A stretch of DNA of 64,000 nt from Planctomycetota bacterium (GTDB lineage Bacteria > Planctomycetota > Phycisphaerae > Phycisphaerales > UBA1924): NCBI GenBank assembly GCA_018242625.1, contig JAFEBO010000001.1, positions 170,681-234,680 of the forward strand, in the 5' to 3' direction. Positions 33,120-63,883 of the stretch are shown piece after piece. The translations under genes and the position numbers were made by a program. Within the stretch, counting starts at the first letter, position 1. Each line of letters begins with the position of its first letter. Below the pieces are notes generated by a model. The model was not told the origin of the DNA, did not search any database, and saw nothing but the letters and a program-made list of their open reading frames with translations.

Positions 33120-33143
33120 AACGCCCGGGTACCTCACATCACT

Positions 33144-45964: not shown

Positions 45965-46015
45965 TTCTTCCCTCCGTGGATTCTGTAAACGATTCGGCCG
46001 TCTCTGCTGGCCCAC

Positions 46016-48785: not shown

Positions 48786-49563
48786 GACTTCTCCTTGCCA
48801 CCAATCTTATTGCAGCAGGTCACCAACGGTGTCAACGACGACCCCCGCTACTCTTGCGCCCTTGCCGTGAATTGCCGACGCAACACTTCGCGCGAAATGC
48901 CTTTCGATCGCCAGAGAATGTGGCGGCGTTAACCTGTTCAACTGAATTCAGACGGTCCGAGATGATGAATAAAACTAAAAGCGATAACTCGATCCGTCGC
49001 GAGTTCCTGATTAGAGAGAACGCTTGCCGCTGAGGCATGGTTTCGACGGATTCATGAATTCGAGCCTCTCAAAGCCCGCGGGCAGTCACGTCACAAAAGC
49101 CAACTATTCCATGAGTCGGTGCAAGCGCTGCTCTGCGGTCGCGAATAAGACTTTTTTGTCGAGCAGCGCGCAAAATCGCGACTCTCTGCAACTAGCTTCC
49201 AGTGCGCCGCGGCCAAAATCAGGGTTCGCGAACTCGGCGACGAGCGTGTGCGCGATGCGCCGCCGCCTCTGCTCCGAATAATTCAGATGATGAGCCACTA
49301 TGTCGGACGCCGAGACCTCATCGGTGGCTCGTGCAAATCGCCTCGGTCGTCTACTCGCGCGGATTTTTCAAATTTTCTGTAAGCGTATGAAACGGCGAGA
49401 GTTGCGCGCCATTTTTCCAGACGGATCCGTGCCAGTCAAGGCATATAATGTGTTGTTCACGAGTAGTTCGTTGCGCCGACATTTTTCCGCATTGCGGTTG
49501 GCTAGGCGACATGTTGTCGCTGCGTGGCCGCATTGCGCCTTTCTCCGACGGGAAGGAAGCCGC
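48786..49563. other. AT-richer 778-nt region with promoter candidate
   Basis: No convincing gene. A 64-codon minus-strand frame (49104-49298, GTG start) has no ribosome site. A perfect TATAAT at 49444-49449 lies 115 nt upstream of the helicase ATG at 49564, without a good -35 box; it could be the promoter of the helicase gene. The frame of the helicase stays open upstream to 49300, but that part has poor codon composition. The region separates the phage-like unit from the defence cluster. Confidence 0.45.
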
Positions 49564-52242
49564 ATGATCGCCTTTCGCTGCCGAGACCATCGCGCCGAGC
49601 ACATACAGCTCTTGCTCCAGGTCGCACCGACGGACGAGGGATCACTGGCTGCGCGGCCATTGGTGGGCTCGCACACTGGCGAGCAGAAACCTGGCGGATG
49701 GCTGGAGGAGAAGCGGCCGCTGGCTCCGGGTCTGTACTGTCAGCGCTGCCTCGCCGGAGGCGGGACGGTGCCGTTGCCGGACTACGACGAGGCGGACCTG
49801 CGCGACGCCGGCCTTCTTGAGCGCCCACACGTCGGGCTGAAAGCGAAGGACTTTGACGTCGACATCGTCTGGACGGGCATCAAACCCCGCGTTGCGCCCG
49901 CTGTCGTCGCTGAGAGCGAACGCGCGGAGCGGGATGCCCGCTACGACGCCCGACTTCGCCAGAAGGGATGGATCGAGGAGCCGGTCGCATCCGCACTGAG
50001 CCGTGCAGTCGGAGGCGGCGAGCTGTACAGCCATCAGGCCGCCGCCATCGACGCCGCCAACCGCGGCGCCGACGTCGTGATTGAAACCGCGACCGCCAGC
50101 GGAAAGAGCCTTTGCTACTGGGGCCCTGTTCTCAACCGCGTCGTCCGCGAGCCGGCGGCGACCGCGTTGTACTTGGCACCGCTCAACGCCTTAGCGGAGG
50201 ACCAACTGAACGGCCTGGACCGCTTGGGGGAAACGCCGACCGAGCACTACAGGTCTGGCACACTCGCCGAGTACACGAGGCCGCTCCGCCTCGGCACCCG
50301 CACCATCCGCGCGGCCCGGTACGAAGGGTCGATCAAAGACCCCGACGTCCGGAAGAGCATCCGTCTCGGCTCGCCCAACATCGTCATCACCAACCCCGAC
50401 ATGCTCCACCACGGCCTGCTGCCTCATCACGAGAAGCTGTGGCGACCGCTGTTCTCCAACCTCGCCTTCATCGTGCTCGACGAGCTGCACACGTACAAGG
50501 GGATGTTCGGGGCGAACGTCGCGAACATCGTGCGGCGTGTCCTGCGCATCGCGGGGCACTACGGCAAGCATCCCCAGATCATCGGTTGCTCCGCGAGCAT
50601 CGGCAACCCCGTCGAGCTGTTCACCGCGATCACCGGGCGCTCGGAGCCCGTGCTCATCGCGGCAAGCGACTCGGGGGCGCCGGTGCGCCGCCAGAAACGG
50701 GTGATCCTGGATGTCACCGCCGTGGAGGAGGCGATGCCGACCCTTGCGAAGAACATCGTCGTCGCCGCAGTGGGCGAGTACAAAGCCCGCACGATCACGT
50801 TCATGCACTCCATCCCCGAGGTTGACCAGGTCTACCGGTACGTCTCCGGCGAGCTCGGGCGGGCGCTCAAGGGGGTGGGGAAGCGTGTCGTGCGCGAGTA
50901 CAAGCGCGAGATCCCACCCGCGGAGAAGGCGCGTGTGACCTCCGACCTCCGGACCGGTGCCACGCTCGGCGTCATCTCCACCACCGCCCTTCAGCTCGGC
51001 ATCGACATCGGGGACCTCTCAGTCTGCGTCGTATGCAAGTTCCCGGGCAGCAAGGCCGCATTCCAGCAGCAGGCGGGCCGCGTCGGCCGGAACGGAGAGA
51101 GCCTGGTCCTGTTCGTGGCGGACGAGTCCCCCCTAGACCAGCATTACGTTGCACGCCCGGACGAGCTGCTGCACGGTTCGCCGGAGGTTGTCTACCTGAA
51201 CCCCGACCACCGCGAGACCGTCCTCAACCATCTTCGCTGCGCTGCGGAGGAGTTGCCCCTCGACCCGTCGACCGATTGCGAGTTCTGGGGACCCGCGATC
51301 TCTGACTTGGTCTCCGAACTGAAGAGCATGCCAGGCATGGCGCCCGACGGCCGCGAGGTCCTGGTCGTCAGGAGACGGGGCGAAGCGGCCTCCGAAGTGA
51401 ACATCCGATCGCTGGGCTTCGAGTGCGTCGTGCGGGACCAGCAGGACGAGGAGGTCGCCCGCCCGGATGTTCTCCGGGCGATGCGCCGCTTCCACAAGTA
51501 CGCCCGGTTCCAGATCCAGGAACAGTCGTACGAGGTCGCACGGCTCAGCATCAACTGGGGCAACCGCAAGGCGGAGGCGATCGCGCGGCAGATCGACAAG
51601 CTCGACTACACGACGGCTTCCGTCATCACCACCGACTGCGCGGCGCTCGACACCCTAGCCACGCGCGACCTCGGGGGCGGTCGCCGCGTGGAGCGCGGCA
51701 ACGTCCGGTTCACGGTGCACGTCGATGGGTACTACAAGGTCCCGGCCGGCTCGGGCAAACCCGAGTACCAGCCGCTGGGCGTTGCAGCTCCGCCGCAGCA
51801 CGAGCTTGATACCGAGGGGCTTTGGTTCTCCATCACCGATGCAGCCCTGACCGAACTCCCCGCGGATGACGTCGCTCCGTCGCTGACGTCCGCGCTTGAG
51901 GCCCTCCGTGTGTCCGCCGCCCTTCTCTGCTCCACCGACCCGGACGACATCGGAGTGCACTTGGGCGAACGGGATGCGGCAGGTGCCTGGCGTCTCTATC
52001 TTGCGGACAACGCGGCCGGCGGCAATGGCCTGACGGAGCAGGTCTACGGGAAGCTCGCAGAACTCACGGACGGTGCGCTGCGGATCCTGCGGGACTGCCC
52101 CCAGTGCAGCGGGAATCCCGAGAGTCGAGGGTGCGCCCGTTGTGTCACGACGCAGTGGGGAGACGACTCAGACGTGTGCCGCGCGGGCGGCATGCAGATC
52201 CTGGGCACGTTGAGCGCTTCGCTGAGCGGCCGTCCGGCTTGA
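49564..52242 (+). CDS. MrfA/YprA-like DEAD-box helicase with C-terminal zinc cluster
   Basis: A superfamily 2 helicase of about 892 residues. Motif I TATASGKSL is near residue 175, motif II DELH (LDELHTYKGMFG) near 305, SASIGNP follows; the second motor domain has STTALQLGIDIG near 475 and QQAGRVGRNG near 502. The C-terminal DUF1998/MZB-like part holds four cysteines (CPQC...GCARC, about 845-860). MrfA in Bacillus is a 3'-5' helicase in mitomycin repair. ATG 49564 is preceded by GGAAGGAAG; ATG 49387 is possible but lacks one. Followed by a same-strand gene after 80 nt. Confidence 0.85.
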   Translation: MIAFRCRDHRAEHIQLLLQVAPTDEGSLAARPLVGSHTGEQKPGGWLEEKRPLAPGLYCQRCLAGGGTVPLPDYDEADLRDAGLLERPHVGLKAKDFDVDIVWTGIKPRVAPAVVAESERAERDARYDARLRQKGWIEEPVASALSRAVGGGELYSHQAAAIDAANRGADVVIETATASGKSLCYWGPVLNRVVREPAATALYLAPLNALAEDQLNGLDRLGETPTEHYRSGTLAEYTRPLRLGTRTIRAARYEGSIKDPDVRKSIRLGSPNIVITNPDMLHHGLLPHHEKLWRPLFSNLAFIVLDELHTYKGMFGANVANIVRRVLRIAGHYGKHPQIIGCSASIGNPVELFTAITGRSEPVLIAASDSGAPVRRQKRVILDVTAVEEAMPTLAKNIVVAAVGEYKARTITFMHSIPEVDQVYRYVSGELGRALKGVGKRVVREYKREIPPAEKARVTSDLRTGATLGVISTTALQLGIDIGDLSVCVVCKFPGSKAAFQQQAGRVGRNGESLVLFVADESPLDQHYVARPDELLHGSPEVVYLNPDHRETVLNHLRCAAEELPLDPSTDCEFWGPAISDLVSELKSMPGMAPDGREVLVVRRRGEAASEVNIRSLGFECVVRDQQDEEVARPDVLRAMRRFHKYARFQIQEQSYEVARLSINWGNRKAEAIARQIDKLDYTTASVITTDCAALDTLATRDLGGGRRVERGNVRFTVHVDGYYKVPAGSGKPEYQPLGVAAPPQHELDTEGLWFSITDAALTELPADDVAPSLTSALEALRVSAALLCSTDPDDIGVHLGERDAAGAWRLYLADNAAGGNGLTEQVYGKLAELTDGALRILRDCPQCSGNPESRGCARCVTTQWGDDSDVCRAGGMQILGTLSASLSGRPA

Positions 52243-52322
52243 ATGAGATCGGAACCGCCAGAGAAAGCCCCACACGGCTAACACCGTCCCTTCCCGCCCC
52301 CCTTGTGACTGAGAGGTGCATC

Positions 52323-53360
52323 ATGGTCCCCACAACACCGAACGCGCCGTCGCCGACCACACTGGCCTACTACACGGACGGAATCGCGTGGAGCTCGAGC
52401 GAGTGGGCGAAGGCGATGCTCCTCTTTTTCGACGGCATCGGCATGCTCGTGCCGCCCCAGGAGGACCGGGCGTTCGAGGAATCGGACGAAGCGGTCATTG
52501 CGGGCATGCGTGACGCCAACTGCTTACGCGTGTTGAGACCCGACGAGCTAGTCGATCAGGTCACGGCCAAGGCCGTCGTGGACTCCGTGACCCGGGCCAT
52601 TGAAGAGCAAGACTGGCGCGGGGACGGCATCAATGGAACGCTCGATCTCCTCTATCTCGACAAGATGGGTTACCGGGCGAGCCGCGCCCCGTTCGAGCTG
52701 ATGGCCCAGCAGCTCCGCGAGCGCCGGTTGGCCGTCGACTGGGAACACGGGGCGTCGATGGCAGTCGACCGGCGCGTCGGGCTGCTGACGCTCTCCGTGA
52801 TCGCCGCCCACTCCAGGCGACGCGGTAACGACCTCGGTGTGCGCCTCACTCCCACGACCGACAATCTGAAGTGGGGCCGCCGTCAGCGCGAGCTTCGTGA
52901 GCACCCGGCCATGCACAGTCTCGCGCAAGTCATCCAAGCGGATGTCGATCAGCTCGCGATCGACGTGGGTCGAGTGCCCGTCAACGAGCTGGTTGATTTC
53001 CGGCGACGCAACATCGAGGCATTGGACCGGTATCGGCTCGGCGTCGCCCGTGTGGCAAGGGACCTCGACAGCCTTGACCCTGAGCACCACGTGACCGTCC
53101 TCAAAGAGCGGGCCGACAATCTGCAGGATGCGCGCCGGGCGGTCGAACGCGCGGGCCGCGACTTCTGGTCGACCGCGGGTTCGCTCACCTTCGCGGTTGG
53201 CGGCATCGCCTGGACTTGTGTTACCGGCGACCTGATGGGGGCCATCTTCGGCCTTGGTGAGCTTGGGCTCGAACTGCTCGGGGCTGAGTCCAAACCTGCC
53301 TGCCCGGCCGAGCTCTCCTACGTAGTTTCGACGACGCAGGAATATCGGCCTCGTTCCTGA
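52323..53360 (+). CDS. Hypothetical protein with hydrophobic C-terminus (DUF6236-like N-terminus)
   Basis: A 345-residue protein. The N-terminus (TLAYYTDGIAWSSSEWAKAMLLFFDGIGMLVP) weakly resembles DUF6236 proteins, which begin with a similar Tyr-Tyr...ALLYFD...VP pattern. The middle is helical and charged. Near residues 285-320 lie two hydrophobic glycine-rich stretches (SLTFAVGGIAWTCVTG and LMGAIFGLGELGLELLG) that could form a membrane hairpin. ATG 52323 with GAGAGG upstream. It lies between the helicase and the protease-ubiquitin-like operon; a membrane-acting effector is possible but speculative. Confidence 0.7.
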   Translation: MVPTTPNAPSPTTLAYYTDGIAWSSSEWAKAMLLFFDGIGMLVPPQEDRAFEESDEAVIAGMRDANCLRVLRPDELVDQVTAKAVVDSVTRAIEEQDWRGDGINGTLDLLYLDKMGYRASRAPFELMAQQLRERRLAVDWEHGASMAVDRRVGLLTLSVIAAHSRRRGNDLGVRLTPTTDNLKWGRRQRELREHPAMHSLAQVIQADVDQLAIDVGRVPVNELVDFRRRNIEALDRYRLGVARVARDLDSLDPEHHVTVLKERADNLQDARRAVERAGRDFWSTAGSLTFAVGGIAWTCVTGDLMGAIFGLGELGLELLGAESKPACPAELSYVVSTTQEYRPRS

Positions 53361-53362
53361 CG

Positions 53363-53434
53363 CCATAGAACGGGCCTTTCCGAGAAAAGGCGGCGTATTC
53401 GCCTCGTTTTGTGTGTTTGGATCGTGTTCTATGG
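53363..53434. repeat. Outer inverted repeat CCATAGAAC...GTTCTATGG
   Basis: Perfect 9-bp inverted repeat at 53363-53371 and 53426-53434, 54 nt apart. The right arm abuts and shares two bases with the left arm of the inner repeat at the promoter. Between the arms, AAAAGGCG...CGCCTCGTTTT (53384-53410) can form a weak terminator hairpin for the upstream gene. Two nested repeats suggest two protein-binding sites or DNA looping. Confidence 0.5.
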
Positions 53435-53482
53435 ACTAGTTTTGACGGAATACTTGACAACTAGTCCAGCATGCGGCATAAT
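53433..53482 (+). promoter_or_regulatory. Promoter with overlapping operator for the ATPase-protease-ubiquitin-like operon
   Basis: TTGACA at 53454-53459 and CATAAT at 53477-53482 are exactly 17 nt apart, a near-consensus sigma70 promoter; transcription would start near 53489, about 27 nt before the ATG at 53516. A perfect 9-bp inverted repeat, GGACTAGTT (53433-53441) and AACTAGTCC (53459-53467), brackets the -35 box, so a protein bound there would block RNA polymerase. The ATPase gene that follows encodes a C-terminal HTH, a candidate binder. Confidence 0.75.
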
Positions 53483-53515
53483 CCCATCTCATACGCGATT
53501 CAACGGGGTTCACGC

Positions 53516-54646
53516 ATGGAAGAAAAACAAACACAGGTAGATGAAATAGTCCACTTGGCCCGGCTCGCCCTTGCGGGGCGCAGCCAGGACGTGCTGCTCT
53601 TTCTCCGCCGGATGACCAAGCGGTGCAGGACGGAACGACCTGAGCTGGCCGCTCAGCTCGCCGAACTGCTCCGAACCAATCCAACTCGGCAAACGCCCCT
53701 GCGCCGGGAGGCCACCGCGGCGAGCCCGGCCCCCGTCGATCTCGACTCCCGCCTCCAACTCGTTCGCCACGAGGAGCCCGTGCAGCTGGAGGTCGAACCA
53801 ATCTGGGCGAAACAGGTCAAGGCCCTTCTCGCCCAGGTGATCTCCGAGCGCGAACGCGAGACCGAGCTCCACCACGCGGGGATATCGCCCACCCGCACCA
53901 TTCTCTTCACCGGCGCTCCCGGCGTCGGCAAATCGCTTGGGGCCCGCTGGCTCGCGCGGGAGCTGAAGCGTCCTCTGCTCACGCTGGACTTGTCGGCTGT
54001 GATGAGCAGCTTCCTCGGGCGCACCGGCACGAACCTCCGCTACGTCCTCGACTACGCGAAGAGCGTCGACTGCGTGCTCCTGCTCGACGAGCTCGACGCC
54101 GTCGCGAAGCGTCGCGACGACGCCACCGAAATCGGCGAGCTCAAGCGGTTGGTGACCGTGCTCCTGCAGGAGATCGACGACTGGCCGCCGACGGGTCTTC
54201 TCGTCGCCGCGACAAATCACCCCGACCTTCTCGACCCCGCCGTGTGGCGGCGCTTCGAGATGAGGGTCGAGTTTCCCATGCCTTCGGCCGACCAGGTTCG
54301 CCAGGCGATCGACACGTTCCTGGGGGCACCCAAGGACCGCTCCCGGGCGTGGCACGACGCCGTCGCGCTCACGCTTCAGGGGCTGTCATTCAGCGAGGTC
54401 GAACGCGAGTTGATGCAGGCACGCCGCGAGGCGATCATCCGCCAGCAGCCGTTGGAGGAGCGGCTCACCACGCTCGTGCAGTCTCGCGTCGGACCGCTGC
54501 CCCGCAAGGAGCGCGGCCGCATCGCTCTCTCATTGACCGAGGCCGGGCTCTCGCAGCGTCAGGTGCACGACGTCACCGGTGTCAGTAGGGACACGATCCG
54601 CAAAGCCGCGCGGCGACAAGCCGAGCAAAAGCCGGAGGAGTGCTGA
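53516..54646 (+). CDS. AAA+ ATPase with C-terminal HTH (IetA-like)
   Basis: A 376-residue classical AAA ATPase. Walker A GAPGVGKS is at about 133-140, Walker B VLLLDELDAV at 186-196, sensor 1 VAATNHPDLL near 232 and an arginine finger (WRRFEMRVEF) near 245. The N-terminal 90 residues are helical. Unusual: residues 341-366 (LTEAGLSQRQVHDVTGVSRDTIRK) form a helix-turn-helix. Partner of the subtilase gene 3 nt downstream, as in IetAS anti-phage pairs where an AAA ATPase accompanies an S8 protease. It may unfold or gate substrates for the protease and could bind the promoter repeat. Confidence 0.85.
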   Translation: MEEKQTQVDEIVHLARLALAGRSQDVLLFLRRMTKRCRTERPELAAQLAELLRTNPTRQTPLRREATAASPAPVDLDSRLQLVRHEEPVQLEVEPIWAKQVKALLAQVISERERETELHHAGISPTRTILFTGAPGVGKSLGARWLARELKRPLLTLDLSAVMSSFLGRTGTNLRYVLDYAKSVDCVLLLDELDAVAKRRDDATEIGELKRLVTVLLQEIDDWPPTGLLVAATNHPDLLDPAVWRRFEMRVEFPMPSADQVRQAIDTFLGAPKDRSRAWHDAVALTLQGLSFSEVERELMQARREAIIRQQPLEERLTTLVQSRVGPLPRKERGRIALSLTEAGLSQRQVHDVTGVSRDTIRKAARRQAEQKPEEC

Positions 54647-54649
54647 TCC

Positions 54650-56884
54650 ATGGCTGAGAAGCAGAACTACCTTCTCGGATACGGCGAGCGCCTGGTCGAG
54701 CGCATCGCGCCGCCACCGACCAATCCCTCGAAGGCCCACCCGTACAGCTTTGAGCAGGCTCGCTCCCGCCTGGAGCCCAAGATGCGGGCCGTCGCCGAAG
54801 ACGTCGCCGCCCTGCCCGCCGCCGCATGCCCTCACGATGAAGCGGTTGCGCTGCTAACGCTCCACCCGGCCTACCTCGCCAAGTCCTACTTTCCCAACGA
54901 CCTGCTCCGTAACACGGGCATGGAGGCGGTGGGGAGCCGCTCCCGCGAGGTGACGCCGGAGAAGTGGACGAAGAAGACGGAACCCAGGCCAACCGTCACC
55001 GCGGAGCTCTATGTCGCGGGGCCACGCAGGCGCTTCGCCGAACTGGCAAGCACGCTCGCGCAGGTTCGAGAGACCGCCCCGGGGGCCACGGACCTGATCA
55101 AGATCGAGGACTTCCGCACCCTGACCCCTGAGGAGCGGCTCAAGCCGCTCCAGTCGGATGCGAAGAACCCGCTCCTCGAGGTCGTGCTGCACGCCCAGCC
55201 CACCTCGGCGTTCGACTTCGTGATCGAGGGGTTCAAGGAATACCTCGACGACTTCGACGTGCATCCGGACCTGGACCGCCGGATCTACGCAGAGGGCCTC
55301 TGCTTCATGCCCGTGCGGGTGCCGCGCGATGTCGTCAACGAGGTCGTGAAGTTCGCCTTTCTCCGCGTGGCCCGCGAGATGCCGCGGCTGCGGCAGTTCC
55401 GCCCCATGACCCGCACCGTGCCTGGGTTCACCCCGTTCTCCTGCGAACTGCCCACCCTCGGCCCTGTGGATCGTGAGACCCGCGTTGCGGTCTTCGACGG
55501 CGGCGTCGCCCCGAACATGGCGCTAGACCTCTGGGTCAACCGGCGGCGGCCTTCCAGCATCGCGAAAGCCGTGCCCGAGTTTCAGAATCACGGCACCGCC
55601 GTCACGTCCGCCCTGCTCTTCGGGCCGCTCCAGGATGGGCAGACCGCCCCGCAGCCCTACGCCTCGGTCGACCACTACCGCGTGCTCGACGACCAGACCG
55701 AAAAGGACGACCAGAACGAGCTCTACTCCGTCCTCCACCGGATCACCGACGTGCTCCAGTCTCGCGCCTACGAGTTCGTCAACCTCAGCATCGGCCCGGA
55801 CCTGCCCATCGAGGACAACGAGGTCCACGCCTGGACCTCGGTCCTCGACCAGTTGCTCGCGAGCGGCAGGACGCTTGCGTCCATCGCGGTGGGCAACGGC
55901 GGAGAGCGCGACAAGGCCCTCGGATATCACCGCATCCAGACGCCGGCCGACTGTGTGAACGGCATGTCGATCGGCGCCAGCGACCGCACCGGCAAGAAGT
56001 GGCGGCGCGCCAGCTACAGCTGCCCGGGGCCCGGCCGCAGCCCCGGTGTCGTGAAGCCCGACGCCCTGGCCTTCGGAGGCTCCAGCCATGAACCCTTCTG
56101 GGTGCTCGGCACCAAGAAGCCCGGGCACGCGGTCCCGGTCACGGGCACGAGCTTCGCCTCCCCCAGCGCGCTCCGCACCGCGCTCGGAGTACGCGCCCAC
56201 TTCGGCCAGGTGCTCACGCCCCTGGCCCTGAAGGCGCTGCTCCTCCACAACTGCGAGGACGGCGGCCACGACCGCGCGGACATAGGGTGGGGCCGGATCC
56301 CCGAGGAGATCGAGGACATCGTGCTCAGCGACGAACACACGGCGCACGTGGTCTACCAGGGCGAACTCGCGCCCGCCCAGTGGCTGCGCGTCCCGGTTCC
56401 TCTACCCACCGAACAGCTCGCCGGCATGGTGACCCTATGCGCGACCTTCTGCTTCGCCACACCCACCGACCCGCAGGACCCGATCCACTACACCAGGAGC
56501 GGCCTCGAGGTACGGTTTCGGCCTCACGACGGGAAGCGCAAGTCCGCCGACCAGGAGCACGCCAATACCAGCGCCTTTTTCCAAGCGGGCGAGTTCTACA
56601 TCGACGAGGCGGAGCTCCGGGCCGACGCGCACAAATGGGAGACAACCCTTCACCGATCGCGCCGCGTGCGTGGCTCGACCCTGAAGAACCCGGTGTTCGA
56701 CGTGCACTACAACGCGCGCGCCGGCGGCCGCAACGCGACGGCCGCCTCGAAAATCCCCTACGCCCTCGTCGTCACCGTCCACTCGCCGAAGACCACCAAG
56801 CTCTACGACAAGGTCGTCCAGCGATACCGCACGATCCTCGAACCGCTACAGCCCACCATCAAGATCCCGATCCGCCGCAGCTAA
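54650..56884 (+). CDS. S8 subtilisin-like serine protease (IetS-like)
   Basis: A 744-residue cytoplasmic subtilase without signal peptide. The catalytic triad is visible: Asp in VAVFDGGV (about 283), His in NHGTAVTS (about 313) and Ser in GTSFASPS (about 501). The first 270 residues are a non-catalytic domain that may bind the ATPase or keep the protease inactive; the last 200 are beta-rich. GGAGGAG in the end of the ATPase gene serves as ribosome site. Followed after 22 nt by the ubiquitin-like gene, which suggests the protease acts on, or is activated by, conjugated proteins. Confidence 0.9.
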   Translation: MAEKQNYLLGYGERLVERIAPPPTNPSKAHPYSFEQARSRLEPKMRAVAEDVAALPAAACPHDEAVALLTLHPAYLAKSYFPNDLLRNTGMEAVGSRSREVTPEKWTKKTEPRPTVTAELYVAGPRRRFAELASTLAQVRETAPGATDLIKIEDFRTLTPEERLKPLQSDAKNPLLEVVLHAQPTSAFDFVIEGFKEYLDDFDVHPDLDRRIYAEGLCFMPVRVPRDVVNEVVKFAFLRVAREMPRLRQFRPMTRTVPGFTPFSCELPTLGPVDRETRVAVFDGGVAPNMALDLWVNRRRPSSIAKAVPEFQNHGTAVTSALLFGPLQDGQTAPQPYASVDHYRVLDDQTEKDDQNELYSVLHRITDVLQSRAYEFVNLSIGPDLPIEDNEVHAWTSVLDQLLASGRTLASIAVGNGGERDKALGYHRIQTPADCVNGMSIGASDRTGKKWRRASYSCPGPGRSPGVVKPDALAFGGSSHEPFWVLGTKKPGHAVPVTGTSFASPSALRTALGVRAHFGQVLTPLALKALLLHNCEDGGHDRADIGWGRIPEEIEDIVLSDEHTAHVVYQGELAPAQWLRVPVPLPTEQLAGMVTLCATFCFATPTDPQDPIHYTRSGLEVRFRPHDGKRKSADQEHANTSAFFQAGEFYIDEAELRADAHKWETTLHRSRRVRGSTLKNPVFDVHYNARAGGRNATAASKIPYALVVTVHSPKTTKLYDKVVQRYRTILEPLQPTIKIPIRRS

Positions 56885-56906
56885 CCAGACGCAAGGAGAC
56901 CCGAAC

Positions 56907-57224
56907 ATGTCGACCCAGTCCAACGACCCGGCAGCAGTGAAAGAACTCATCGACCTCGAGCAGTTCGCGAAAGCGGACCGCCGCCCGCCCTCCCACCAGC
57001 GCTATCGCATCCGCATCGACAAGACCCATTACGAGGTTGATGTGTCCGCGATGACAGGCCGCGAGATCCTCGCCCTCGCGGGGAAGACCCCCGAATCGCA
57101 CATGCTGTCGCAGAAGCTGCGCGGGGGCCAGTCCATCCCCATCGAGGCAAACCAGACGGTGGACTTCACGACGCCCGGGATCGAGCGTTTTCAGACACTC
57201 GCTCTGGACCCGACGGAGGGCTAA
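56907..57224 (+). CDS. Ubiquitin-like beta-grasp protein (multiubiquitin family, single domain)
   Basis: A 105-residue protein with one Multiubiquitin-type beta-grasp domain after a 30-residue helical lead: YRIRIDKTHYEVDVSAMTGREILALAG forms the first strands and helix, followed by the characteristic SQKLRGG and VDFTTPGIERFQTL. It ends in Gly at residue 105 with no extension, so it appears ready for adenylation without processing. AAGGAG ribosome site. In related operons this protein is the tag attached by the E1 and E2 encoded next door, here 2 nt downstream. Confidence 0.85.
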   Translation: MSTQSNDPAAVKELIDLEQFAKADRRPPSHQRYRIRIDKTHYEVDVSAMTGREILALAGKTPESHMLSQKLRGGQSIPIEANQTVDFTTPGIERFQTLALDPTEG

Positions 57225-57226
57225 TA

Positions 57227-57616
57227 GTGCGGCGCGACTTCAAGCTACCGGAGGGCGATGAACGGTGCCTCAACGCCCGCGGCACCCCATGGGAGACCGT
57301 CCTGCACGGGAGCGTGCAGTGGCTCCTCGTCCAGGCCTTTCAGATCCCCGCCGGGTACAACTGCGACACCGCAACGGTCGCGCTGCGGATCCCGCCCAAC
57401 TATCCGACCGAGCAGATCGACATGGCGTACTTCGAGCCACACCTGAGCCTCAAGAGCGGCAAGGCCATCGGGGCTCTCACCTCGACCACGATCGATGGAC
57501 GTTCGTTTCAGCAGTGGTCCCGTCACCGCACCGCGCAGAACCCGTGGCGTGTCGGTGAGGACGACGTGTGCTCGCACCTGTTGCAGGCGTCGTCTTGGCT
57601 GAAGAGGGAGCTGTAG
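57227..57616 (+). CDS. Prokaryotic E2-like (UBC-fold) protein, Prok-E2_E type
   Basis: A 129-residue E2-like protein. Family features are DFKLPEGDE at the start, WLLVQAFQIPAGYN, the UBC-like IPPNYPTEQIDMAYFEPHL and the C-terminal WSRHR...WRVGEDDVCSHLL. These match Prok-E2_E proteins found beside ubiquitin-like genes. Cysteines are at 14, 46 and 115; which, if any, carries the thioester is unclear, because the usual E2 position after the YP motif is occupied by WSRHR. GTG start 2 nt after the ubiquitin-like gene. It should transfer the tag from the E1 to targets. Confidence 0.82.
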   Translation: MRRDFKLPEGDERCLNARGTPWETVLHGSVQWLLVQAFQIPAGYNCDTATVALRIPPNYPTEQIDMAYFEPHLSLKSGKAIGALTSTTIDGRSFQQWSRHRTAQNPWRVGEDDVCSHLLQASSWLKREL

Positions 57617-57618
57617 CC

Positions 57619-59022
57619 GTGACCGCCAAGTGTCTCAAGATCCGGCTGACCGAGCTTCAGCACGGCGAACTGCGCCGACACCTCTTTCCCGGCGACGGCC
57701 TGGAGGCCGTCGCCGTCGCCCTGTGCGGCATGCGCAATGGCACGTCGTCCCAGGTGCTCTCCATTCACCGCGTCGTGCCGATCCCGTACGACGAGTGCCA
57801 GGTTCGCCGCGTCGACAGGGTGACGTGGTCCACAAAGCGCCTGGTGCCGCTCCTGGACGAGGCGGCCAAGCGCGGCATGGGGATTCTCAAGGTTCACTGC
57901 CACCCGACCGGCTATCCACTGTTTTCCGAAGCAGATGACGCGTCCGACCACGACCTCTTCGAATCGATCTCCGCCTGGACCGACTCCGACCTGCACGCCA
58001 GCGCCATCATGCTTCCCGACGGGGAGGTGTTCGCCCGGCGCCTGCTCACGGGCGGTCTGTTTGAGGCCGCGGAGTCGGTCAGCGTGGCGGGCAGCGACAT
58101 CAAGTTCTGGTCGGAGGCCGCTCGCACAGGGCGCACGGCCGAGTTTGCGCGGCGGCATGCCCAGCTTTTCGGCTCGGGTACCACGGCGCGCCTGAGGGAG
58201 ATGACGGTCGGCGTCGTCGGGTGCTCGGGCACCGGCAGCCCGGTGATTGAACAGCTTGCGCGGCTTGGGGTTGGCCGCCTGGTCTTGATCGACCCCGATC
58301 GCATCGAGGAGAAAAACCTGAACCGCATCCTCAACGCATCCCGTGAGGACGCGTACCTCAACCGGTACAAAGTTGACGTTATGGCCTCGGCCATTGCCCG
58401 GATGGGATTCTGCACCGAGCTGGTGCTGCTTCGGAAGAATCTGCACGACGCCGAGGCCGTTCGGGCCGTCGCAGAGTGTGACGCGGTCTTCGGGTGCATG
58501 GACGGGGTCGAGGGCCGGCATTTGCTCAACCGCATCGCCGCTTTTTACCTGATTCCCTACTTCGACGTCGGCGTGAAGCTCGTGGCCGATGGTAAGGGTG
58601 GGATCGACGAGGCCTGCGGTGCGGTGCACTATGTCAAGCCGGATGGGTCCAGCCTTTTCAGCCGCGGCGTCTATTCCATGGCGCAGGTCACATCGGAAGG
58701 CCTACGCCGCACGGACCCGGCGGCGTACCGCGCCCAGGTCAGCGCGGGGTACATCAAGGGAGTGCAGGAGGACCGGCCCGCCGTCATCAGCATTAACATG
58801 CAGCTTGCGTCGATGGCCGTGAACGAGTTTCTAGCCAGAGTCCACCCTTACCGCCTGGACGAGAATTCCGACTTCGCCGTGGTGCGTGCTAGCCTCATCC
58901 AGGGAGAGCTCTACCGCCAAAAAGACGGTGACCCCTGCCCGGCGCTCCGCAAGTATGTCGGCCGTGGCGACGTGGACCCTCTGCTCGACATGCCTTCTCT
59001 GAGCGGAGACCAACCCTCATGA
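57619..59022 (+). CDS. E1-like ThiF adenylyltransferase fused to N-terminal JAB/JAMM protease
   Basis: A 467-residue fusion. The N-terminal 150 residues are a JAB metalloprotease with the full zinc motif: His93 and His95 (HCHP), Ser103 and Asp106. Residues 190-440 are a ThiF/E1 domain with the Rossmann loop GVVGCSGTGSP near 200, DPDRIEEKNLNR and CMDG. It would adenylate the tag's C-terminal glycine, while the JAB part could cleave tags off. The stretch GSSLFSRG, where ThiF-type E1s often have CxxC, has Ser instead of Cys. GTG start at 57619, 2 nt after the E2-like gene. Confidence 0.88.
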   Translation: MTAKCLKIRLTELQHGELRRHLFPGDGLEAVAVALCGMRNGTSSQVLSIHRVVPIPYDECQVRRVDRVTWSTKRLVPLLDEAAKRGMGILKVHCHPTGYPLFSEADDASDHDLFESISAWTDSDLHASAIMLPDGEVFARRLLTGGLFEAAESVSVAGSDIKFWSEAARTGRTAEFARRHAQLFGSGTTARLREMTVGVVGCSGTGSPVIEQLARLGVGRLVLIDPDRIEEKNLNRILNASREDAYLNRYKVDVMASAIARMGFCTELVLLRKNLHDAEAVRAVAECDAVFGCMDGVEGRHLLNRIAAFYLIPYFDVGVKLVADGKGGIDEACGAVHYVKPDGSSLFSRGVYSMAQVTSEGLRRTDPAAYRAQVSAGYIKGVQEDRPAVISINMQLASMAVNEFLARVHPYRLDENSDFAVVRASLIQGELYRQKDGDPCPALRKYVGRGDVDPLLDMPSLSGDQPS

Positions 59023-59381
59023 TCACTTGGCTGCGGCGCATCTGGAATCGCATCCTCGGATGGTGGCGCGGGGCGCCGAAGCCATTTCGCACGCTCGCGG
59101 TCGATGAGTTGCCCGACGAGCTGGCCGCCAACACGCTGTACCTGGCCGGCGAGAACGAGCATTTTTGGTGCGCAGCCATGCTCTGCCCCTGCGGCTGCGG
59201 CGACTCGATTCAGCTAAACCTCTTGACCCAGGCTCGCCCGTGCTGGCGAACGTCTCGCCATGAAGATGGAACTGTGACTCTGCACCCCTCGGTCTGGCGC
59301 CGACAGGGCTGCAAGAGCCATTTTTGGTTTCGCCGTGGGTTCGTCGAGTGGTGCGGCGCGGACATTAGCAATGCCGGGTAG
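59019..59381 (+). CDS. DUF6527 family protein
   Basis: A 120-residue protein overlapping the E1-JAB gene by 4 nt (ATGA). It contains the DUF6527 features MLCPCGCGDSIQLNL, RPCW, VTLHPSVWRRQGCKSHFW and a final GFVEWC; the cysteines and histidine probably bind zinc. DUF6527 genes recur in ubiquitin-like operons, where a peptidase-like or substrate role has been suggested. An N-terminal Trp/Arg-rich helix (WLRRIWNRILGWWRG) could dock to a membrane or a partner. Last gene of the operon. Confidence 0.82.
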   Translation: MITWLRRIWNRILGWWRGAPKPFRTLAVDELPDELAANTLYLAGENEHFWCAAMLCPCGCGDSIQLNLLTQARPCWRTSRHEDGTVTLHPSVWRRQGCKSHFWFRRGFVEWCGADISNAG

Positions 59382-59455
59382 GCTGCCAAGACGCAAGGTT
59401 TGAATGCACGCAGTTCCGGGCTACGTCGGAGTTTCGCAAACCAGGAAACAACCAA

Positions 59456-60628
59456 ATGCTCTGCCCATATTGCGGCAAAGACCGACCGGATGGCGAGCGC
59501 TCGCGCGAGCACGTCGTCCCGCAGGCCATCGGTGGAGGTCTCGAGCCCGTCAATCCGTTCATTCTCGAAGGCGTCTGCAAGAGATGCAATTCCGCAGCGG
59601 GCCATTACATCGATGGGCCCTTTCTGCGGAGCTGGTTTATTCAGAACAGTCGGCACGCGAATGCGCTACGCCACGTGCAACTCAATCCCAACACAGTTCT
59701 GCCTCTCGGCTACAACGGCCAGTTGAAGCACGAAATCGTTCCTGGTCTCTTGTGCGATTATTGGAGAGGTCCAACGGGTGATTCGATTTTTCATTTCCAT
59801 GTGACATATCCCGAGTCAACCGGTATCGCGACCATCGGCCTTCCGACCAATGTGCCGCCCGAGCAAATGGACCCCGGATTCGCCTTTCTATTCCTTGCTG
59901 CCACGAATCCCGTGTGGCACCTACCAATTGTCAATTCTGTGATGGCCACGTTGCCAGGCGCCGAGCTCTATCTCGGCAACGGGCCACCGGGCGGGCCCCT
60001 CCAGCCAATTCCGGAGGCAAGGACCGGAATCCAACGCGAGTTACGACGCCTAGTGGAGGGCGACATTCCGACGGAAATCTCTGTGGCGAAAGACTATGGC
60101 GATCGGTTCCTGGCAAAGCTGGCCCTGGGAATCGGAGCTTTGCGTCTGGCACCGGAATTTGTAAGGAGCGACGATGCAAAGATCTTGCGTGACGCGATGT
60201 GGCAGCGAGATTCCACCGAGCGAGCCAAACTCCCAGTCGTGGGCACCGGGTTCCTCGAATCTTCGTCAAGTGGGATAACGGGGTTGCTTCATTGGCCACA
60301 GGGCCATTTGCTAGTTTTGAAACAGGTGGGGCGCTCGTTGTCACTGTGTCCAGTCTTTTTCGGTCAACTTTCCGCCGTCGTGCAGATCACGAGCACGCCA
60401 GCTTTTTGGCGGGACCGAATCGATGCCAACGGAGCTGTGTTTGCTATCGCACCGGGTCTGCGTCGTGTGGTGGGTCCAGTAGATTTGGCAACGTTTATCG
60501 CCGCGAGACAATTTCCAGATGAAGTGATCGATCAGCAACTTACGGATTTGTTCCGCGCCGTAGAGAGCAGTCCTCCACTTCCTAGATTTCATGCGAGTGA
60601 TGGCCTGACGGTTAGCGTTGTCAAATGA
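59456..60628 (+). CDS. HNH-type nuclease-domain protein
   Basis: A 390-residue protein. Residues 1-55 form an HNH fold: CPYCG, the catalytic EHVVPQAIGGG and the second zinc pair CKRCN. The remaining 330 residues are an alpha/beta domain of unknown kind. ATG at 59456 with AGGAAAC upstream. It follows the ubiquitin-like operon by 74 nt on the same strand and may be a separate defence nuclease or an effector of the operon; no overlap links them. Confidence 0.75.
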   Translation: MLCPYCGKDRPDGERSREHVVPQAIGGGLEPVNPFILEGVCKRCNSAAGHYIDGPFLRSWFIQNSRHANALRHVQLNPNTVLPLGYNGQLKHEIVPGLLCDYWRGPTGDSIFHFHVTYPESTGIATIGLPTNVPPEQMDPGFAFLFLAATNPVWHLPIVNSVMATLPGAELYLGNGPPGGPLQPIPEARTGIQRELRRLVEGDIPTEISVAKDYGDRFLAKLALGIGALRLAPEFVRSDDAKILRDAMWQRDSTERAKLPVVGTGFLESSSSGITGLLHWPQGHLLVLKQVGRSLSLCPVFFGQLSAVVQITSTPAFWRDRIDANGAVFAIAPGLRRVVGPVDLATFIAARQFPDEVIDQQLTDLFRAVESSPPLPRFHASDGLTVSVVK

Positions 60629-60800: not shown

Positions 60801-62324
60801 CTAGACGTAGAAACGGAACTGCGGGCGACGATCTTTCACCGAAGGGTTGGAAATCAAAATCTCGCCGACAGCATCGGAGAATCCAACTGTCACCGGCTGT
60901 GAATCACCGAGCTTGCATGTGTTGTAGTTAAGTTTCGTGAGGCCATAGATATCACGTGCAACTTGCTCGATGTCAGCTTCACCGTGCTGCACCTCAAGGG
61001 AAAGCGGCACCGGGACGTCCCATCCGTCATATGCGGCCAATTCGGGCTTGAATCCGGAGGTCCACAAAAACCCATTGCGATCGCCCGTTTTCAGGAATGT
61101 GCCTCGTAGCACGGGACGCGTTCCTTCCCGAAACAATCGCATGGACCGCGAGGCTGAGCGAACCCGAACTGCAACGAGCTTTGTGTCGCGAGGTACAGCC
61201 TCGGCATATCCGGCAAACTCCTCAGCATCGATCCCTGAACGGGCATGGAGAAAGACCTCCCGAAGTGGTTTGCCGTGTAAGTCGGTGTAGGTCTTGATGA
61301 TTCCGCTCAGAAGCGCCTTGGCGGCCTCGGGCTTAAGGTGAAATTGCTTGGTATCCGGTGCATACCACGGACCATACTCGCCCAGAAACACCACACCATC
61401 GCCGTCATCCAGGAACATCTGCGCGGCGCAACAGCCGTTTCGCGAGTCTTGACCTGGATTCTGCAGGCGGAAAGCGATCCCGACGTAGCAGACACCCTCA
61501 CGAGCCGTCGCCAACCGCCACGGTCGGCCTCCTGCCTTGTAATAGAGGGCGGTGCCGAGATTCCACATTCGATCTGAAAGCGGCGTCAGCCCACGATACG
61601 AAAACCGGGGGTCTTTGGTCAACGAGAGAGTCGATTCTCGAAGAATCTGGATAGGCGTGCCGAACCGCATGACGCGGGCTTTTAGTTGTCTCCGGAAGTC
61701 CGGAGCAAGTTGGTAGACGGAAGGGTCGAAGGTATCAAACAGACCGCGATCTCCGCGAATGCGGCTGCGAGTTTCTTTCGCCGACGGACTCTCGCCCGTG
61801 CCTTGGGCAACTGCCTGCTGAGGCCGACAATTCTTCCAGACTTCGTCAGGCACCACACATACAAGTAGCCGCGGTTGCTCGTCACGCTTCTGAGCTCGTT
61901 CAATCGGATCAAGGATTAGGTTCACAACTGCATTAACTCGTTGATAGCGATCGTTGAGATTCGCCGCCGCGAGGATTTTGTCCCGATCAACCTGCTCCTC
62001 CCATGCTGGCTGATTCGGCCAATCCATTCCGAACGCCACATCAAAGCCGGGAAACAGAGGCCAGAGGGATGCTTTCTTGTCCTCTGGCGATGGAACAGGA
62101 CCACTCATGCGATCAGCAAAGGCTCGAAAGAGATTGTTGCCTTCTTTGGTGCCGACAAGTGCGTAGGACATACCACGGGGACCGGCGCCGGTGTCGGCGT
62201 CCAAGGGGCCGAACAAGGACAGGCCGTCGTGCGGGCGTGTCATTCGCTGGCCAAATCGGAACTCAAGCTCGGGCTCCTCGAGAACAGTGACCTCACGGAA
62301 CTTCGTCGGCATCGGCATGGTCAT
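60801..62324 (-). CDS. Short prokaryotic Argonaute (MID-PIWI), SPARTA type
   Basis: A 507-residue short Argonaute with only MID and PIWI domains. PIWI features include LSDRMWNLGTALYYKAGGRPWRL, CYVGIAFR, FLGEYGPWY and the region VFLHARSGIDAEEF. The catalytic DEDX tetrad of slicing Argonautes is not apparent, as expected for short pAgos. It binds guide RNA and complementary DNA and, with TIR-APAZ, triggers NAD+ loss in infected cells. An AGGAGG ribosome site lies five bases before ATG 62324, inside the end of the TIR-APAZ gene, with which it overlaps by 32 nt. Confidence 0.9.
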   Translation of the reverse strand: MTMPMPTKFREVTVLEEPELEFRFGQRMTRPHDGLSLFGPLDADTGAGPRGMSYALVGTKEGNNLFRAFADRMSGPVPSPEDKKASLWPLFPGFDVAFGMDWPNQPAWEEQVDRDKILAAANLNDRYQRVNAVVNLILDPIERAQKRDEQPRLLVCVVPDEVWKNCRPQQAVAQGTGESPSAKETRSRIRGDRGLFDTFDPSVYQLAPDFRRQLKARVMRFGTPIQILRESTLSLTKDPRFSYRGLTPLSDRMWNLGTALYYKAGGRPWRLATAREGVCYVGIAFRLQNPGQDSRNGCCAAQMFLDDGDGVVFLGEYGPWYAPDTKQFHLKPEAAKALLSGIIKTYTDLHGKPLREVFLHARSGIDAEEFAGYAEAVPRDTKLVAVRVRSASRSMRLFREGTRPVLRGTFLKTGDRNGFLWTSGFKPELAAYDGWDVPVPLSLEVQHGEADIEQVARDIYGLTKLNYNTCKLGDSQPVTVGFSDAVGEILISNPSVKDRRPQFRFYV

Positions 62325-63753
62325 GGTCTACCTCCTCGGATTCCACAGGAACCTCATCTCCCGTTTCTTCAATAGCCTCCAGCTTCGCTTCGTCGATCCC
62401 AACTGATGCTTCAAATGACAGCGGCGCAGCGCCGATGACCACTTGCTGAGGCCCGGCTGAACCAATGCGCATCGTGCCGTCGGCACCCTCGAGAAACTGT
62501 ATGAGCGCCAAGTGGCGAACCAACCAATGCCGGTTGAACCAACTGCGTGTGACGTGCTTTCGACGCGACAACTGCTGTGTGGGAAGCAAAGGTTGATCGT
62601 TTACGTCTGTGAAGTAGAATCGCAGCCGCCACACCAAGGCGCAGTCACCAAACAGATCTCGTTCGACGATAGGCTTGGCCGCCAGGCGATAGCGGTATGG
62701 AACTTTGGGTTGACCGATGCGGAAGAATGTTCTCTGGCCTGAATGCTGCACAGTGGTCGTTTCGCCGGAAGGCAAGCGAACAGGCAACGTTTGTCCGAGC
62801 GGACCAGTGAAATGGAAGGCCTCAGTATCGCGCGACCATGCCATGCCGCGTCGGCGGCAATGTGTTTCCACCGCCGCTCGGAGCAGGGCGCTCACCACGT
62901 TCGCACTCTTGATGCCCTCAACGGTCGGCACGTTTCGCCAGTTGGTAGATTGGATCGGAGTAACGCGGAGCCAACTGGCCAGATCCGGATCAGGCGGACT
63001 GAAAGCGATGACATGGGTCGGAGACACCGTGTAGAACGGCCAGTCCCGTCCGGCGTCGCCAGCCACCTGCTTATCCAACTTGGGGTCCACTTTGAAGGTG
63101 ACTAGCTCCGCAGGTACCTGTGCGAACGGCTGCACATTGGATGTCAGCACTTCTGGTCGTTGCACGATGATGTCATGGTGGCCGTAAGCCGCACGTGCCA
63201 CAGAGCGGCCGTTGTCGGCAAACTTTGGACAACCCTCTCGCTCCAAGAGCTTCAAGAGTTGTGCAAAGCCTTTTCCCCAAGAGGCGGCGAAGGAGATAAA
63301 GGTGATGTCGGAAGTCAACCAATCGAGGTCAGCTGCGGCGAGTCCGTCCACGTTGAGAGGGATCAGAAAGCCGGCCAACTCCGGCTTCTTGGCGAGGGTG
63401 AGCGCCAGCGTGCGCTCCTTGAGCGGGTTTGGCTTCGCGATGGAGTGCTGCGACAGAAGGCCCAACATTCGGAAGGTTCTGGTCTTGATCGCGGCATCAA
63501 TGTCTTTCGGCCACGATTCACCTCCTAAGAGTTTCAACTGATCCATCCACACGCGATATCCCTCGGCGGTCAGCCGCAAGGCAAGCCAGCGTGCGAACGC
63601 CTGATCTTCCCAGGCGTAACTGATGAACAGGTGATCGCGTGACGGTGCGTCGGTAAGAGCCGCCGTGTGTGTCTTCTGTGGAACCAGAACTTCGACGGGC
63701 GCACGACCGGCGGCTGCTCGTGACTCGGGAGAGATCGGCCTTCCAATGGCCAT
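62293..63753 (-). CDS. TIR-APAZ protein, SPARTA effector
   Basis: A 486-residue protein. The TIR domain (about residues 42-170) shows HLFISYAWEDQAFARWLALRL and the catalytic Glu in GGESW near residue 79, typical of NADase TIRs. The rest is an APAZ domain, which pairs with short Argonautes in place of their N and PAZ parts (QRPEVLTSNVQPF, VIAFSPPDPDLASWLRV). ATG 63753 is chosen because AAGGAG lies seven bases upstream; an ATG at 63801 lacks one. Together with the Argonaute gene it forms a complete two-gene SPARTA-type unit. Confidence 0.9.
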   Translation of the reverse strand: MAIGRPISPESRAAAGRAPVEVLVPQKTHTAALTDAPSRDHLFISYAWEDQAFARWLALRLTAEGYRVWMDQLKLLGGESWPKDIDAAIKTRTFRMLGLLSQHSIAKPNPLKERTLALTLAKKPELAGFLIPLNVDGLAAADLDWLTSDITFISFAASWGKGFAQLLKLLEREGCPKFADNGRSVARAAYGHHDIIVQRPEVLTSNVQPFAQVPAELVTFKVDPKLDKQVAGDAGRDWPFYTVSPTHVIAFSPPDPDLASWLRVTPIQSTNWRNVPTVEGIKSANVVSALLRAAVETHCRRRGMAWSRDTEAFHFTGPLGQTLPVRLPSGETTTVQHSGQRTFFRIGQPKVPYRYRLAAKPIVERDLFGDCALVWRLRFYFTDVNDQPLLPTQQLSRRKHVTRSWFNRHWLVRHLALIQFLEGADGTMRIGSAGPQQVVIGAAPLSFEASVGIDEAKLEAIEETGDEVPVESEEVDHDHADADEVP

Positions 63754-63883
63754 ACTTGGCTCCTTGCGAAAACCAGGGCATCGCTGGACGACTTCGTGCA
63801 TTCGGCTGACAGGCTACGGCGCTTCTATGCGGTATGGCCTATCTATTTCTTACCGCGACCGGTGTCGCCGAATCCCTTCTTAG

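What the first reader, a model, noticed from the sequence alone, without database searches (positions are those of the whole stretch)
53433..59381. AAA+ ATPase and subtilase joined to a complete ubiquitin-like conjugation operon
Six genes run without a break: AAA+ ATPase, S8 protease, ubiquitin-like protein, E2-like, E1-JAB fusion, DUF6527 (gaps 3, 22, 2 and 2 nt, then a 4-nt overlap). IetAS pairs (ATPase plus S8 protease) and Bub-type ubiquitin-like operons are each known as defence-type modules. Here they share one promoter and tight coupling. A reasonable model is a bacterial tag-and-degrade system: E1/E2 mark targets, JAB edits, and the ATPase feeds marked proteins to a cytoplasmic subtilase, in analogy to ubiquitin-proteasome. 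I do not know this six-gene combination as a described system.
Basis: partly seen in the sequence, partly recalled or inferred. Interest (0 to 1): 0.93.

Follow-up and report, generated by a model that had tools for sequence, protein, structure and literature searches.

The report
Bacterial ubiquitin-like operon with own protease
A bacterium carries, in one tightly packed gene cluster, genes predicted to attach a ubiquitin-like tag to proteins together with genes for a predicted ATP-driven protease pair; the same partnership turns up in at least four separate branches of the protease's family tree, so it likely forms a tag-and-destroy (or tag-controlled) defence that would resemble our own ubiquitin-proteasome system.

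Summary
The six genes exist as described: IetA-like AAA+ ATPase, IetS-like subtilase, one-domain Ubl, Prok-E2_E, JAB-E1, DUF6527; gaps 3/22/2/2 nt and a 4-nt overlap, one promoter-like site with a 10-nt dyad. The E2 and JAB-E1 match the solved BubB and BubCD; ATPase and subtilase match PADLOC IetAS models but fall below NCBIfam equivalog cut-offs. The joining is not local chance. The 120 nearest subtilases and 119 nearest E1-JABs share 17 exact contig lengths (control mean 0.53), so the joint system appears to be a widespread, co-inherited family. On plasmids 6 of 25 IetS places have a multi-ubiquitin/E1 module within 4.2 kb (uniform-density expectation 0.009). The linked label needs four changes on the subtilase tree; a single linked clade is rejected (p-AU 0.0002). 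Yet most IetAS pairs and Bub loci that I looked at stand alone. The likeliest mechanism, untested, is tag-and-degrade: Bub conjugates the Ubl, and the ATPase feeds conjugates to the subtilase. Ubl control of the protease is nearly as likely. I found no description of the combination, but the two key Bub papers were not readable here.

The parts
53388..53404 (+). terminator-like hairpin with T-rich tail, between the upstream gene (52104-53360) and this operon
   Evidence: consensus match only; 6 found in the region, shuffles mean 3.9
53432..53468 (.). operator-like perfect dyad, arms 53432-53441 TGGACTAGTT and 53459-53468 AACTAGTCCA, straddling the -35 hexamer
   Evidence: the pattern, written after seeing it, occurs once in the window and in 0 of 100 shuffles; operator role inferred
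53454..53482 (+). promoter-like site TTGACA-17-CATAAT, the only one found in 53000-59600
   Evidence: sequence read
53516..54646 (+). IetA-like AAA+ ATPase (ORF listed from 53471; start 53516 more likely) with Walker A/B, sensor and Arg-finger residues, pore-loop-like SFLG, C-terminal HTH-like stretch
   Evidence: AAA 4.4e-28; HTH_23 9.6e-05, under its cut-off; IetA 1.5e-82
54650..56884 (+). IetS-like S8 subtilase, 744 aa; triad D283/H314/S501; predicted subtilisin core plus C-terminal beta-rich part
   Evidence: 6.7e-15; IetS 9.8e-44
56907..57224 (+). Ubiquitin-like protein (Multi_ubiq, one domain), ends in Thr-Glu-Gly; BubA counterpart by position
   Evidence: 6.1e-14; solved BilA 1.2e-06; Citrobacter BubA only 0.11
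57227..57616 (+). Prok-E2_E protein (BubB homologue); no conserved Cys, invariant Q95, S98-R99-H100
   Evidence: 2.3e-33; 3e-21 to Citrobacter BubB
57619..59022 (+). JAB-E1 fusion (BubCD homologue); JAMM residues E29, H93, H95, S103, D106, and ThiF adenylation domain
   Evidence: family profile 2.1e-110 to Citrobacter BubCD
59019..59381 (+). DUF6527 protein, Cys/His-rich, predicted metal binding
   Evidence: 1.7e-22; no solved relative by sequence; an extra protein with a Zn-finger-like signature is described for type 6e operons (Iyer 2006; that DUF6527 is that protein is my inference)

Best explanation
A compact six-gene cluster joins an IetAS-type AAA+ ATPase-subtilase pair to a complete Bub-type ubiquitin-like module (Ubl, E2, JAB-E1, DUF6527), and it likely works as a bacterial tag-and-degrade defence in which the Ubl would mark proteins that the ATPase then would feed to the subtilase. 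Shown from sequence and comparison: gene order and a promoter-like site, conserved catalytic residues in ATPase, subtilase, JAB and E1 parts, homology of E2 and JAB-E1 to the solved BubB and BubCD, equal contig lengths of the nearest relatives of both modules, and repeated association of IetAS pairs with ubiquitin-like modules. Inferred steps: the E1 adenylates the C-terminal Gly of the Ubl; the cysteine-free E2 passes it to a target, perhaps through the invariant Ser-Arg-His segment; the JAB domain removes it; DUF6527 acts as an adaptor; the ATPase, as a hexamer, recognises conjugates, unfolds them and delivers them to the cytoplasmic subtilase. Targets (phage or host proteins) are unknown.
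For: Families and conserved motifs. 17 exact contig-length matches between 120 nearest subtilases and 119 nearest E1-JABs, against a mean of 0.53 (max 3) at shifted lengths; 14 against 0.05 for contigs of 10 kb or more; subtilase-E2 5 against 0.41; E1-E2 10 (one of them the window's own pair) against 0.56. Distances of the paired subtilases and E1s correlate: r 0.89 in 18 pairs with the window; r 0.37, p 0.001 in 16 pairs without the window and its nearest relative. 6 of 25 plasmid IetS places have E1 plus multi-ubiquitin at 0.35-4.1 kb, and the window's E1 alone, at the E-value limit and collection size, finds the same six; expectation 0.009. Four changes forced by starred branches on the subtilase tree; one clade rejected, p-AU 0.00017 and 0.0002. 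Same-strand and convergent arrangements and different Ub modules occur. The ATPase has an aromatic residue at the pore-loop-1 position in 15 of 20 aligned rows (the position is assigned from recalled AAA+ knowledge).
Against: No experiment. Many IetAS pairs have no Ub genes near: 16 of 25 plasmid places have no E1 in the flanks examined; ten class genomes with the pair and G978 have none by tblastn (L120 held only 4.3 kb); no Ub gene was found by tblastn with the window's proteins beside the pairs in viral contigs. So the pair does not need a tag in general. 19 of 20 other Prok-E2_E loci with extended DNA have no IetAS pair, some with short flanks, nor have L002, L050, L051, L052. Linked and unlinked subtilases overlap in length, so no added Ubl-binding domain is evident. 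In Rhizobiaceae the modules are convergent, hence not one transcript. The contig match rests on equal lengths, not on names. The window lies in a defence island, so plain co-location is possible, and caspase genes also occur beside the pair.
Confidence: 0.4

Rival explanations
1. Ubl conjugation controls the protease pair: Bub would attach the Ubl to the ATPase or subtilase to arm or restrain it, and JAB would reverse this, as conjugation primes CD-NTase in type II CBASS.
For: IetAS is found without Ub genes in most loci examined, so a Ub module looks like an add-on layer. Conjugation of the partner enzyme is the described mode in CBASS (PMC10097602, PMC10449767; titles and starts of abstracts seen, text not read). 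Sister subtilases use different Ub modules.
Against: No linked-only lysine or tail was looked for; the JAB domain and C-terminal Gly fit either model.
Confidence: 0.33
2. Two independent defence modules travel together without biochemical coupling, because defence genes cluster in islands.
For: The window looks like a defence island: type IIG-like methylase with helicases, N6/N4 methylase, TIR-APAZ-like plus short pAgo. In G022, G377 and G978 the pair stands alone.
Against: Four separate associations, adjacency at 0.35-4.1 kb against an expectation of 0.009, co-inheritance in the window's family. The expectation assumes uniform density, which islands break; an island effect would still not predict the same partner repeatedly, though caspase partners also occur.
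Confidence: 0.17
3. The subtilase is the Ubl's processing or deconjugating protease rather than a degrading one.
For: The subtilase gene directly precedes the Ubl gene.
Against: The window's Ubl already ends in Gly and a JAB domain is present; a AAA+ unfoldase would not be needed.
Confidence: 0.07

Closest known systems
Bub (bacterial ubiquitination-like) operons; Citrobacter BubA/BubB/BubCD, PDB 9ea4, 9ea5, 9ea8, 9eae, 9eav; Iyer 2006 operon type 6e
   Same: Multi_ubiq Ubl, E2-like protein without the Cys, JAB fused before E1; BubB 3e-21, BubCD 2.1e-110; an extra Cys/His protein as in type 6e (section 14 of PMC1779556)
   Different: Citrobacter BubA itself matches the Ubl only at E 0.11. What I read of Bub operons (PMC13373217 passages; Iyer 2006 section 14) names no ATPase-subtilase pair; here the pair precedes the Ubl in the same cluster
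IetAS (ATPase plus S8 protease anti-phage pair)
   Same: PADLOC IetA 1.5e-82 and IetS 9.8e-44, gene order ATPase-subtilase
   Different: Below NCBIfam equivalog cut-offs (240.7 against 510; 96.5 against 900), and joined to a Ub module
vWA-MoxR subsystem 3, FtsH ternary systems with Ubl conjugation (Kaur 2020, PMC7159879, passages seen)
   Same: A AAA+ protease gene set joined to E1, E2, JAB and Ubl in a predicted conflict system
   Different: FtsH, vWA/MoxR, RING E3 and EAD1-Ubl; no IetAS-type subtilase in the passages seen
Recurrently acquired nuclease-protease pairs (PMC12799240; start of abstract, two passages)
   Same: A two-gene cassette acquired repeatedly by unrelated immune systems
   Different: Trypsin-like protease with nuclease; 'ubiquitin' occurs once in its text, in the reference list, and 'subtilisin', 'Bub', 'Bil', 'IetAS' not at all
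Pup-proteasome of actinobacteria (recalled)
   Same: Protein tag plus AAA+ ATPase plus protease
   Different: Unrelated tag, ligase and protease

Membership tests
Bub / type 6e ubiquitin-like operon | Multi_ubiq Ubl with C-terminal Gly | tested here: met
   (ends TEG); solved Citrobacter BubA only at E 0.11
Bub / type 6e ubiquitin-like operon | Prok-E2_E protein related to BubB | tested here: met
   (3e-21 to Citrobacter BubB)
Bub / type 6e ubiquitin-like operon | JAB-E1 fusion related to BubCD | tested here: met
   (2.1e-110); JAMM residues
Bub / type 6e ubiquitin-like operon | Upstream CapW, CapH+CapP or CapK+CapS regulator (frequent, not defining: 219 and 59 of 544, PMC13373217 passages) | tested here: inconclusive
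   only the one ORF directly upstream (52104-53360) was scanned; weak DUF6236 match only; a dyad sits at the promoter
Bub / type 6e ubiquitin-like operon | Conjugation activity | not testable with these tools
   needs biochemistry
IetAS | AAA+ ATPase directly followed by S8 protease, PADLOC models | tested here: met
IetAS | NCBIfam equivalog cut-offs IteA/IteS | tested here: not met
   240.7 of 510 and 96.5 of 900 bits; hence called IetAS-like, not IetAS
IetAS | Anti-phage activity | not testable with these tools
   needs phage challenge
Ubiquitin-proteasome-like tag-and-degrade system | Protease acts on Ubl-tagged substrates | not testable with these tools
   needs biochemistry
Ubiquitin-proteasome-like tag-and-degrade system | Unfoldase with conserved ATPase motifs plus protease with conserved triad in one cluster with E1/E2/Ubl/JAB | tested here: met
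CBASS type II / E1-E2 fusion systems | E1-E2 fusion | tested here: not met
   E1 is fused to JAB and the E2 is a separate gene; PADLOC E1-E2 models match only the ThiF part

The most novel reading that the evidence does not exclude
Bacteria have repeatedly built self-contained ubiquitin-proteasome analogues: an IetAS-type AAA+ unfoldase and cytoplasmic subtilase serve as the degradative machine for proteins tagged by a linked Ubl conjugation module, and one such combination (this six-gene operon) is a stable, widespread defence family.
Probability: 0.36. Interest if true: 0.92.

Novelty: new variant of a known kind. Interest (0 to 1): 0.77.

Why it matters
What bacterial ubiquitin-like tagging is for is largely open; [quoted passage not shown] A family in which a conjugation module and a AAA+ protease are co-inherited and repeatedly re-associated makes a direct test possible: does the tag send proteins to the protease, or does it switch the protease? 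Either answer would give both modules a function and offer an independent bacterial case of coupling tagging to proteolysis.

Tried and rejected
Tried without use: a genome-contig scan with the E2 alone gave one locus (L002, a Bub operon without IetAS). Viral contigs with the subtilase alignment gave 15 loci; 12 hold a subtilase beside an IetA-like gene and 3 only subtilase fragments, none with a Ub gene found by tblastn with the window's proteins. Viral contigs with the E1 alignment gave nothing. The PADLOC IetA family search matched all 397 genomes through other AAA+ proteins, so 20 top places were fetched and only those with a subtilase were used. The N-terminal ~240 residues of the subtilase model were barely tested by the fold comparison, so nothing is claimed for them. 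No solved relative by sequence for the subtilase or DUF6527.

Considered and rejected: chance neighbour; a single origin of the linkage; an exported subtilase (starts MAEKQNYLLGYGE, no signal-like stretch; read by eye).

Limits. Tree (quick method): rows P0031, P0049, P0102, L120, L135 and L055 carried no label (context unknown or too short); L082 (Xanthomonas) counted as unlinked although a Ub-like operon lies 6.7 kb away; the linked label of the eight P rows rests on contig-length matches, that of P0024 on a 4.1-kb contig; the tool warned of long branches (L136, L066, L055, L118, L134, L078) and of joins that may be false around L134 and L055. The AU test assumes groups named before the tree was seen, which was not so. 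Contig matches rest on equal 'longest contig' lengths; the subtilase and E1 lists are cut at the best 120 of 1,844 and 4,858. The expectation of 0.009 assumes uniform density and the 162 E1 places. Flanks examined on plasmids were 6-10 kb a side, less for L081, L135 and L143. Phylum of the genome not determined.

Literature: searches showed no paper joining IetAS with Bub. Ye 2026 (PMC12885553), Gong 2025 (PMC12145246) and Chambers 2024 (PMC11476048) are not held, so a mention there cannot be excluded.


Full report
What is there. Six genes run on the + strand without a break. The first encodes an IetA-like AAA+ ATPase (PF00004 4.4e-28; PADLOC IetA 1.5e-82), the second an IetS-like subtilase of 744 aa (PF00082 6.7e-15; PADLOC IetS 9.8e-44), then a one-domain ubiquitin-like protein (Multi_ubiq 6.1e-14), a Prok-E2_E protein (2.3e-33), a JAB-ThiF fusion (ThiF 1.6e-30; JAB 2.3e-05, just under its cut-off) and a DUF6527 protein (1.7e-22). 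The ATPase start is very likely 53516: the single promoter-like site, TTGACA-17-CATAAT at 53454-53482, would leave the 53471 ATG untranscribed. A perfect 10-nt dyad straddles the -35 box, which suggests a repressor site; the ATPase itself ends in a helix-turn-helix-like stretch (under the curated cut-off), so self-control is possible but untested.

Active parts. The subtilase keeps D283, H314 and S501 invariant in 49 aligned rows. The ATPase keeps Walker A and B, the sensor Asn and both arginines in 20 of 20 aligned rows, with an aromatic residue at the pore-loop-1 position in 15 and leucine in 5. The JAB part keeps E29, H93, H95 and S103 in 20 of 20 rows and D106 in at least 90%, and the E1 part its nucleotide-binding motif. 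The E2 has no conserved cysteine; Q95, S98, R99 and H100 are invariant in 20 rows, in line with the Cys-less E2-like proteins of the type 6e operons (Iyer 2006, PMC1779556, section 14 read). The Ubl ends in Gly; in two Rhizobium loci it is fused to the E2 in one gene, past a Gly that would need cutting.

Is the joining real elsewhere? Four tests. First, contig fingerprints. The protein search gives, for each cluster, the length of its longest contig. Of the 120 listed subtilases (62-95% identical) and the 119 of 120 listed E1-JABs with a length, 17 pairs have exactly equal lengths, against a mean of 0.53 and at most 3 when one list is shifted by 1-200 bases; for contigs of 10 kb or more it is 14 against 0.05. 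Subtilase-E2 gives 5 against 0.41 and E1-E2 10, one of them the window's own pair, against 0.56; two contig lengths occur in all three lists. Paired distances correlate (r 0.89 in 18 pairs with the window; r 0.37, p 0.001 in 16 pairs without the window and its nearest relative). So nearest relatives of both modules very likely sit together and have been inherited together; for what share of the family this holds is unknown, as the lists are cut.

Second, plasmids. All 25 places where one stretch covers at least 80% of the subtilase were fetched. Six have a multi-ubiquitin protein and an E1 at 0.35-4.1 kb: R. leguminosarum, Rhizobium sp. 007 and A. pusense (convergent, with BubCD-type E1 and DUF6527), Methylovirgula and Bradyrhizobium (same strand, separate JAB-like and ThiF genes before the ATPase), and Mycolicibacterium crocinum (same strand: ATPase, subtilase, two unknown genes, an ImmA/IrrE protein, multi-ubiquitin, weak Prok-E2_E, ThiF). 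The first tally used E1 queries drawn partly from these loci; the window's E1 alone, at the limits, finds the same six. Three records of one Xanthomonas plasmid lineage have another JAB/ThiF operon 6.7 kb away, and 16 have no E1 in the flanks examined. Uniform density predicts 0.009. Komagataeibacter and A. tumefaciens carry a caspase operon beside the pair instead.

Third, genomes near this one. With this genome counted, Prok-E2_E occurs in 17 of 397 genomes of the class sample and 5 of 61 relatives. Of 22 other places found there, 20 were fetched with more DNA; one (G053) has the pair directly after the E1, and one (G056) has a subtilase remnant 4.8 kb from the E1. Of 20 top IetA places of the class (own and G053 aside), ten have a subtilase recognised beside them and none a Ub gene by tblastn, one with only 4.3 kb held. 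The subtilase is in 5 of 392 genomes of the phylum sample at E 0.001 (three of them weak) and 6 of 380 of the order sample at E 1e-30, this genome counted. Of the six, this genome and G053 are linked, G022, G377 and G978 are not, and G958's contig is too short. None of the seven congeners has it. The operon is therefore likely a sporadic, horizontally moved unit.

Fourth, phylogeny. On a 48-row subtilase tree the Ub-linked label needs four changes, all forced by well-supported branches: the window's clade, the alphaproteobacterial plasmid clade, G053 and Mycolicibacterium (the last has a long branch, and the tool warned of possible false joins). In a 29-row tree one linked clade is rejected with p-AU 0.00017, and so is a joint clade of the first two groups, 0.0002. 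Within the alphaproteobacterial clade, sister subtilases go with different Ub modules and orientations.

How it likely works. Tag-and-degrade is my choice at 0.4: the Ubl is put on targets and the ATPase threads them into the subtilase. The recurrence suggests that the modules benefit from each other; it does not show the direction. Because many IetAS pairs stand alone, a control role of the Ubl is almost as likely (0.33), by analogy with CBASS. Mere co-location (0.17) is weakened by adjacency and co-inheritance but not excluded, as the window looks like a defence island after tRNA-Ser.

Novelty. Both halves are known kinds; nine answered searches showed no paper joining them, but the defining Bub papers were not readable. 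The nearest described idea is an FtsH-type AAA+ protease system with a Ubl module (PMC7159879, passages), and the nearest evolutionary parallel is the repeated acquisition of nuclease-protease pairs (PMC12799240, start of abstract and passages).

Noticed in passing
window 60801-63801 (-): TIR-APAZ-like protein (62293-63801) and short pAgo (60801-62324) by PADLOC models, a SPARTA-like pair (name recalled), just beyond an HNH gene (59456-60628, +).
   Followed up: partly
window 20120-52242: Defence-island-like stretch after tRNA-Ser: two large serine recombinases (21416-23155, 40433-42001), helicases and a type IIG/DrmMI-like methylase (24560-38603), an N6/N4 methylase (46762-48198), a weak terminase-like match (44189-46015) and an HRQ1-like MZB helicase (49300-52242).
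   Followed up: partly
window 53432-53468: Perfect 10-nt dyad TGGACTAGTT/AACTAGTCCA over the -35 box; the ATPase's C-terminal HTH-like stretch is a candidate binder.
   Followed up: partly
L079 3394-6765 and L080 3396-6765: IetAS pair divergent from a caspase operon in Komagataeibacter (Peptidase_C14 by Pfam) and A. tumefaciens (by annotation): the pair seems to be a cassette with different partners.
   Followed up: partly
L025 13534-13737 (-): Remnant of a subtilase (residues 675-742, 59% identity) 4.8 kb from the E1 of a Bub operon in a genome of the same order, suggesting loss of a former link.
   Followed up: no
L136 11355-13221: Two genes without Pfam match lie between the subtilase and the ImmA/IrrE-multi-ubiquitin genes in Mycolicibacterium crocinum.
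   Followed up: no
L141 17462-20812: Xanthomonas euvesicatoria plasmid: small protein, DUF7665 protein, JAB-like, ThiF and a further gene form a Ub-like operon 6.7 kb downstream of an IetAS pair.
   Followed up: partly
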